Shown: positions 1,618 to 2,214 of the stretch, piece by piece
Layout: every line of letters begins with the position of its first letter
Position numbering within the stretch: the first letter of the stretch is position 1
NCBI GenBank assembly: GCA_903904765.1
Contig: CAIVEA010000056.1
Location: forward strand, 1 to 5,484
Source: an uncultured Chloroflexota bacterium
GTDB lineage: Bacteria > Chloroflexota > Anaerolineae > Aggregatilineales > Phototrophicaceae
Direction of reading: 5' to 3'
Length of the DNA stretch: 5,484 nucleotides
Notes under the pieces: model-generated
Seen by the model: only the letters and a program-made list of their open reading frames with translations
Databases searched by the model: none
What the model was told of the DNA's origin: nothing
Translations under genes and position numbers: made by a program

Positions 1618-2214
1618 ATGCCGTATATCCAGCAGGTATCGGATGACGACGCACAGGGCGCAGCGCGGCGCGAATTGGACGCGGCACGCAAGCGTGCGGG
1701 GCGTGTGTGGAACATCGTCCGCATCATGACTCCCAATCCGGCGGTGCTGAATGCCAGCATGGGCATGTATATGGCGCTCATGTTCGCAGAGTCGCCCCTC
1801 TCGCGGGTGCAGCGCGAAATGCTGGCGGTGGTGGTCAGCCAGACCAACGGCTGCCGCTACTGAACGCAGGCACACGCTCATGACCTCCGTGCTGAGGTCA
1901 AACACCTGCCCCCGGACGAAGCCGACGCATGGGTTCACGCGCTGGCACGCGACTGGCGCGGCGCAGCATTACAGGCGGCGGACGCGGCGCTGTGCTACTT
2001 CGCGGAGGCCGTCACGCGGCATCCGGCGGGCATGGGCGAAGCGCAGGTCGCGGCGCTGCGGACGGCGGGCTTCGATGACCGCGCCATCCACGATGCAACG
2101 CAGATCATCAGCTACTTCAACTACATCAACCGGATTGCCGACACGCTGGGCGTAGAACTGGAAACGTTCGTCCGCCACTGGGGAGAAAAAGACGTACCAT
2201 TCGACCAGACCTAG
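1618..2214 (+). CDS. AhpD-like peroxidase-related selenoprotein with a C-R-Y-U active site
   Basis: Read through the in-frame TGA at 1861-1863, this is one continuous 198-codon frame ending at TAG 2212-2214. It matches the carboxymuconolactone decarboxylase/AhpD superfamily, specifically the uncharacterised peroxidase-related enzymes. The N-terminus MPYIQQVSDDDA and PLSRVQREMLAVVVSQTNGC (60-79) are family-like. E67, C79, residue 82 and H86 form the ExnCxxCxxxH active site. After the TGA the protein continues with TQAHAHDLRAEV (83-94), LARDW (109-113), EAQVAALRTAGFDDRAI (141-157) and SYFNYINRIADTLGVELE (165-182), all expected of the family. The TGA sits exactly at the second, normally Cys, position of CxxC. 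AhpD-type proteins use this pair in thiol-dependent peroxide reduction, and selenocysteine would raise reactivity. An alternative in-frame ATG at 1606 would add MDAT. The ribosome binding site is weak: GGA at 1608-1610 for the start at 1618. A nonsense pseudogene is the main alternative, but the exact position, the intact downstream frame and the SECIS-like hairpin argue against it. Confidence 0.85.
1861..1863 (+). other. Probable selenocysteine codon (in-frame UGA, residue 82)
   Basis: The codon after C79-R-Y is TGA, where the AhpD family has its second active-site cysteine, one base away from TGC. UGA acts as a normal stop elsewhere in the window: the ComEA-like gene ends in TGA at 3557-3559, one base before the convergent ABC gene. 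Genome-wide reassignment of UGA is therefore unlikely. The four neighbouring complete or partial genes contain no other in-frame UGA. Confidence 0.82.
1881..1900 (+). promoter_or_regulatory. Bacterial SECIS-like hairpin downstream of the UGA
   Basis: TGACCTC (1881-1887) and GAGGTCA (1894-1900) form a perfect seven-base-pair stem with the six-base loop CGTGCT. The loop starts 24 bases after the UGA and has a G at its second position. This agrees with the general bacterial SECIS pattern as I recall it: a stem-loop right after UGA, an apical loop roughly 16-37 bases away, and a G among the first two loop bases. SelB would bind this loop to deliver selenocysteyl-tRNA. The hairpin lies within codons 88-95 and so is translated after insertion. 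Confidence 0.7.

What the first reader, a model, noticed from the sequence alone, without database searches (positions are those of the whole stretch)
1618..2214. Probable AhpD-like selenoprotein: in-frame UGA replaces the second Cys of the CxxC active site
Seen directly: one TGA at 1861-1863 splits a family-like protein at C79-R-Y-X82, the frame continues for 116 codons with family-typical sequence to a TAG, and H86 keeps the CxxCxxxH spacing. UGA is a true stop for the ComEA-like gene in the same window. Established: AhpD-family proteins use this Cys pair for redox catalysis, and AhpD-like selenoproteins have, as I recall, been reported from environmental sequence surveys. Inference: UGA is read as selenocysteine, giving a C-x-x-U centre. 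Standard gene calling would give a truncated protein ending at 1863 plus a fragment from 2032, hiding the gene.
Basis: partly seen in the sequence, partly recalled or inferred. Interest (0 to 1): 0.9.

Follow-up and report, generated by a model that had tools for sequence, protein, structure and literature searches.

The report
AhpD-like selenoprotein from a Chloroflexota bacterium
An apparently broken bacterial gene is almost certainly an intact antioxidant-type enzyme whose internal stop codon is read as selenocysteine; it belongs to a family of selenium proteins that was already known.

Summary
In detail: frame 1618-2214 carries one in-frame TGA (1861-1863, residue 82), spaced C79-x-x-U82-x-x-x-H86. 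In all 80 genomic relatives returned (the best of 512) the same codon is TGA, between intact Cys and His codons. The closest relative, L001 (90% identical over 5.5 kb), comes from a genome with tRNA-Sec, SelA, SelB and a SelD that itself carries an in-frame TGA. A hairpin 24 nt after the UGA fits the published bacterial SECIS model. Its codons are frozen across 81 sequences, and all six stem pairs form in 77 of 81, against a mean of 8.7 in synonymous shuffles. The sequence after the TGA is under purifying selection. Caveat: the window's own genome is not held. The protein belongs to the peroxidase-related branch of the AhpD superfamily (TIGR01926, COG2128), whose CxxU selenoproteins have been in print since 2005. 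It is a new, well-supported member of a known kind.

The parts
1618..2214 (+). AhpD-like (TIGR01926, peroxidase-related) selenoprotein gene, 198 residues with predicted Sec82
1852..1854 (+). TGC, Cys79, the partner cysteine of the C-x-x-U pair
   Evidence: Cys codon in 80 of 80 relatives examined
1861..1863 (+). TGA, predicted selenocysteine 82
   Evidence: TGA in 80 of 80 relatives examined; Cys in 10 of 30 loci of the wider Chloroflexota sample
1873..1875 (+). CAC, His86, conserved catalytic-type histidine
   Evidence: His codon in 80 of 80 relatives examined; invariant in the 24-row alignment A1
1881..1900 (+). bacterial SECIS hairpin: 7-bp stem, 6-nt loop CGUGCU (1888-1893), 24 nt between UGA and loop
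   Evidence: model quoted from PMC13188914
1560..1598 (+). strong hairpin (1560-1596) ending in a T run, likely transcription terminator of the upstream gene
   Evidence: -22.9 kcal/mol, z -6.3; not reported by the consensus scan

Best explanation
The gene encodes a small all-helical AhpD-superfamily peroxidase-related enzyme. UGA at codon 82 is decoded as selenocysteine by SelB and tRNA-Sec, directed by the hairpin at 1881-1900. The product most likely reduces a peroxide or a similar oxidant through the C79-x-x-U82 pair. The selenolate of U82 would attack the substrate, C79 would resolve it as a selenenyl-sulphide, and H86 with E67 would relay protons; a cellular thiol system would then reduce the pair. 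Shown here by comparison: conserved codon, SECIS, machinery in the closest sequenced relative, purifying selection, fold. Inferred: actual Sec insertion in this organism, substrate, catalytic roles and reductant.
For: 80 of 80 genomic homologues returned (the best 80 of 512 confirmed) have Cys-TGA-His at these codons. Of the 120 catalogue hits listed, 45 full-length homologues have W at residue 82, as expected if a gene caller translates TGA as Trp, and 62 are C-terminal pieces, 55 of which begin to match at residues 83-85. Of 30 loci fetched from the Chloroflexota sample, 20 have TGA and 10 have Cys at that column. The genome of L001 has tRNA-Sec with anticodon TCA, SelB 376 bits, SelA 519 bits and SelD with CAGUASKL. 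SECIS. Selection. Fold: pLDDT 92.4, TM 0.80 to 6k40.
Against: The window's own genome is not held, so its Sec genes are inferred from L001. The hairpin of the window alone is unremarkable: z -1.94; 286 of 1000 synonymous shuffles of it fold as well, and about 10% keep the six pairs. The strength lies in the 81-row comparison. The tRNA-Sec family search is over its cut-off in 5 of 14 control genomes too, so that hit alone is weak. By hand count, 2 of 56 sampled genomes with a TGA-bearing match have no selA match and one has only a weak one; 5 of 23 tested lack a strong selB. Incomplete genomes may explain this, but completeness is not told. No biochemical evidence exists here.
Confidence: 0.96

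Rival explanations
1. The TGA is a true stop, or a sequencing error or pseudogene; the protein is truncated or split.
For: A standard ORF list gives two pieces.
Against: TGA in 80 of 80 relatives examined; dN/dS after the TGA 0.18-0.22; one profile spans both halves.
Confidence: 0.01
2. UGA is reassigned to Trp (or another sense residue) genome-wide.
For: 45 of the 120 listed catalogue homologues carry W at this position.
Against: ComEA in the same window ends in TGA; 10 of 30 loci of the Chloroflexota sample have Cys, none has Trp, at the column; tRNA-Sec with anticodon TCA and SelB are present in the L001 genome; the frozen codons around the hairpin would be unexplained.
Confidence: 0.01
3. 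It is a selenoprotein, but its main role is not peroxide reduction: for example a thiol oxidoreductase or a reductive dehalogenation step on the same fold.
For: The fold search also returns the debrominase Bmp8 (6ohi, 6ohj); several of the closest solved structures are named only uncharacterized or putative.
Against: The closest structures are named alkyl hydroperoxide reductase or peroxidase-related; identity to Bmp8 is only 17-18%.
Confidence: 0.25

Closest known systems
AhpD-like selenoprotein, COG2128 / TIGR01926, CxxU (PMC1088965, PMC2398784 'AhpD-like 1', PMC1794560, PMC9312934, PMC13188914; passages seen)
   Same: Same family model, same CxxU motif, SECIS directly after the UGA
   Different: Nothing essential; this is an additional member, from a Chloroflexota lineage. 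The passages I saw name no Chloroflexota member of this family, but I did not read the papers whole or their supplements
Cys-containing peroxidase-related proteins 6k40 (Deinococcus radiodurans), 2pfx, 2oyo, 3c1l, 2prr
   Same: Fold; 26-34% identity in the fold search
   Different: Cys in place of Sec in 6k40 and 2pfx, the two whose alignment I saw; these two also lack the DLRAEV stretch that carries the SECIS here
NF041238 AhpD_rel_CFYUT (seleno)protein and NF053654 YciW-related (seleno)protein
   Same: AhpD-superfamily families that NCBI already labels as (seleno)proteins
   Different: The window protein scores 73.4 of 175 and 20 of 310 bits, below both cut-offs

Membership tests
TIGR01926 peroxidase-related (AhpD superfamily, COG2128) | Score above the curated cut-off | tested here: met
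   139.8 bits against 81.8
TIGR01926 peroxidase-related (AhpD superfamily, COG2128) | Cys-x-x-Cys/Sec with His four residues on | tested here: met
   C79, U82, H86; Cys-TGA-His in 80 of 80 relatives examined
TIGR01926 peroxidase-related (AhpD superfamily, COG2128) | All-helical AhpD fold | tested here: met
   AlphaFold2 model pLDDT 92.4; TM 0.80 to 6k40
TIGR01926 peroxidase-related (AhpD superfamily, COG2128) | Peroxidase activity | not testable with these tools
   No assay
Bacterial selenoprotein | In-frame UGA aligned with Cys of homologues | tested here: met
   Of 30 fetched loci, 20 have TGA and 10 have Cys at the column
Bacterial selenoprotein | bSECIS: loop 3-9 nt, stem 4-16 bp, G in the first two loop positions, mostly followed by G or U, 16-37 nt from UGA, MFE at most -7.5 kcal/mol (PMC13188914) | tested here: met
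   Loop 6 nt CGUGCU, stem 7 bp with the outer U-A pair, spacing 24 nt; -11.8 kcal/mol for 1861-1902, -15.3 for 1861-1910. The optional pair inside the loop of that model is not evident
Bacterial selenoprotein | selA, selB, selC, selD in the organism | tested here: inconclusive
   All four in the genome of close relative L001; own genome not held
Bacterial selenoprotein | Selenium in the purified protein | not testable with these tools
   Needs mass spectrometry

The most novel reading that the evidence does not exclude
In this branch of the family, Sec is the standard and long-kept state across Chloroflexota, Gemmatimonadota, Planctomycetota and some Actinomycetota. The conserved protein stretch D-L-R-x-E-V exists at least partly because the RNA hairpin needs it, so that RNA has shaped the protein rather than the reverse.
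Probability: 0.4. Interest if true: 0.4.

Novelty: new member of a known kind. Interest (0 to 1): 0.3.

Why it matters
It corrects a gene that a standard ORF list splits in two. It also shows a large group of TGA-bearing AhpD-like genes in environmental Chloroflexota and Gemmatimonadota, many of which stand in the protein catalogue as C-terminal fragments or with Trp at the active site. The frozen SECIS codons are a clean, reusable criterion for finding further members.

Tried and rejected
Considered and rejected: pseudogene or sequencing error (80 of 80 relatives examined share the TGA); genome-wide recoding of UGA (ComEA ends in TGA). A functional link with neighbouring genes was tested at tblastn E <= 1e-15: among 74 loci with more than 1.5 kb upstream, a nitrilase-like match was found in 3 (one of them at 25% identity and some 3 kb downstream of the gene), and MscL in 2 and ComEA in 4 of 76 loci with more than 1.5 kb downstream. 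The neighbourhood gives no function. Rfam on the window gave 4 matches, all below their gathering scores. The single-sequence hairpin is not significant on its own. In the count of structure pairs, 4 of 6 pairs never vary, one pair has changes on both sides, and 91 of 500 shuffles reach that number; the covariation argument is therefore small, and the codon-choice argument is the stronger one. The UGA group is not one clade in the tree (112 rows, 5 label changes, weak deep branches, long branches meeting), so ancestral Sec is not shown. That tree left out L095 (same gene as L001) and L122 (under 140 residues) and added three Cys proteins that I picked by hand. A consensus promoter/terminator scan and an inverted-repeat search of 1500-2450 found nothing. 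Association with selA is weak evidence because selA is common in the sample (331 of 400 at E <= 0.001).

Bias to note: the relatives were collected with three peptide patterns, one of which covers the HAHDLRAE stretch, so the conservation of those residues is partly selected. Codon choice would be selected only if the tool's back-translation is not fully degenerate, which I could not check.

Full report
Observation. Reading TGA as a residue, 1618-2214 encodes 198 amino acids ending in TAG. TGA is codon 82; C79 and H86 give C-x-x-U-x-x-x-H. The read-through protein matches NCBIfam TIGR01926 (peroxidase-related enzyme) at 139.8 bits over residues 2-180, and Pfam CMD over residues 41-91, across the TGA. 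The 81-residue first part alone still passes the CMD cut-off; the second part alone has no family match above a cut-off.

Origin. No whole genome is held for the window. The best genomic relative, L001, is a contig of an uncultured Chloroflexi MAG (Loclat_bin-07687). It is 90.2% identical to the window over about 5.5 kb, and all six neighbouring genes tested match it. I infer that the window is from a close relative in Chloroflexota.

Conserved UGA. All 80 have TGA at residue 82, a Cys codon at 79 and a His codon at 86. By record title they include Chloroflexota, Gemmatimonadota, Planctomycetota and Actinomycetota, with two rows placed under Pseudomonadota. Of the 120 listed hits in the protein catalogue (354 in all), 57 span the site: 45 have W at residue 82, 3 Cys, 4 a gap, 2 Gly and one each Arg, Leu and Ser. 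A further 62 are C-terminal pieces, 55 of which begin to match at residues 83-85, and one is an N-terminal piece. I infer that W comes from gene callers reading TGA as Trp. In a sample of 400 genomes of the same phylum, 89 had a match at E <= 1e-10. Of the 30 loci fetched from it, 20 have the stop at column 82 (one of them, L095, is the L001 gene again) and 10 have Cys there. The Cys loci are 31-36% identical to the window protein, the TGA loci 32-92%; in two Cys loci the residue at column 79 is not Cys.

SECIS. The hairpin 1881-1900 has a 7-bp stem and the loop CGUGCU, starting 24 nt after the UGA. The review PMC13188914 (passages seen) gives the bacterial model as loop 3-9 nt, stem 4-16 bp, a G in the first two loop positions mostly followed by G or U, spacing 16-37 nt and MFE <= -7.5 kcal/mol; these are met. 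Across the window and 80 relatives, Leu90 is CTC in 81 of 81, although CTC is 333 of 1133 Leu codons elsewhere in the same genes. Arg91 is CGG or CGT in 81 of 81, although CGC is the commonest Arg codon elsewhere (593 of 1129). Glu93 is GAG in 81 of 81. The full six-pair stem forms in 77 of 81 rows, against a mean of 8.7 and a maximum of 18 in 1000 synonymous shuffles. Six rows carry ATC at residue 94, and all six have GAT instead of GAC at residue 89, turning a C-G into a U-A pair; these rows fall in two separate clades of the tree. Related rows are not independent, so the p-values overstate the case; only one of six pairs shows a two-sided change. For the window alone the energy is not significant (z -1.94; 286 of 1000 synonymous shuffles as low).

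Machinery. The genome of L001 has tRNA-Sec above the Rfam cut-off (5 of 14 control genomes also pass it), called tRNA-SeC with anticodon TCA by ARAGORN. It has SelB at 376 bits (cut-off 242), SelA at 519 bits (cut-off 268; apparently split over two contig ends) and SelD at 370 bits (cut-off 125) with an in-frame TGA in CAGUASKL. In the 400-genome sample, 331 have a SelA match at E <= 0.001 and 321 one above the cut-off. Counting by hand, 54 of 56 genomes with a TGA-bearing match have a SelA match at E <= 0.001 (one of them weak), against 26 of 33 with only TGA-free matches and, by subtraction, 251 of 311 without any match. This agrees with Sec decoding but is weak evidence. The column of the TGA was checked only for the 30 fetched loci. 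SelB is strong in 18 of 23 genomes tested: the 20 with the best TGA-bearing matches and the three with no or weak selA.

Selection. Against six relatives (L001-L006), dN/dS (NG86) is 0.01-0.21 for residues 1-81 and 0.18-0.22 for residues 83-190 (0.15-0.23 for 97-190, leaving out the hairpin); dS exceeds 1 in all but L001, so these ratios are rough. The part after the TGA is a protein under constraint.

Fold and mechanism. The model (U modelled as Cys; pLDDT 92.4, pTM 0.87) is all-helical and matches 6k40, 2pfx, 3c1l, 2prr and 2oyo. E67, C79, residue 82 and H86 have the spacing of Glu118, Cys130, Cys133 and His137 of Mycobacterium tuberculosis AhpD (that numbering and those roles are recalled, not from a call). 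By that analogy Sec replaces the attacking residue, C79 resolves and H86/E67 relay protons. Substrate and reductant are not shown.

Comparison with what is known. The Sargasso Sea survey of 2005 described an AhpD-like CxxU family (COG2128, 27 sequences; PMC1088965, passages). The 2008 GOS survey lists AhpD-like 1 (COG2128, CxxU) with 299 selenoproteins (PMC2398784, passages). Reviews of 2022 and 2026 list it as COG2128 and as TIGR01926, CxxU, both with the example MCB9421940.1 (PMC9312934, PMC13188914, passages). A 2006 survey lists 2 AhpD-like (COG2128) selenoproteins, and 3 selenoproteins in Chloroflexi (PMC1794560, passages). The main text of the 2026 review does not contain the words Chloroflexi or Chloroflexota, and the deep-Sep paper's main text does not mention AhpD (PMC12013277, term search). 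Supplements were not seen. The finding is therefore a new member of a known kind. What this work adds is the breadth of TGA-bearing homologues and the frozen SECIS codons; I did not search print specifically for either.

Noticed in passing
G001 (genome of L001), C263:3317-3808: A second, more distant AhpD-like gene (41% identity) with one in-frame TGA: the genome may have two AhpD-like selenoproteins.
   Followed up: no
L093: SelD of the L001 genome carries an in-frame TGA in CAGUASKL and so is probably itself a selenoprotein.
   Followed up: partly
400 Chloroflexota genomes sampled: 321 of 400 have a SelA above its cut-off, which suggests that Sec use is common in this phylum; only 23 were tested for SelB, chosen because they bear the gene.
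   Followed up: partly
1560-1598: Strong hairpin with a T run after the carbon-nitrogen hydrolase gene (z -6.3), missed by the consensus scan; the selenoprotein gene is probably a separate transcription unit.
   Followed up: partly
2288-2398: Long imperfect palindrome between the selenoprotein gene and mscL (-56.7 kcal/mol, z -5.0), possibly a repeat element; the inverted-repeat tool did not list it.
   Followed up: no
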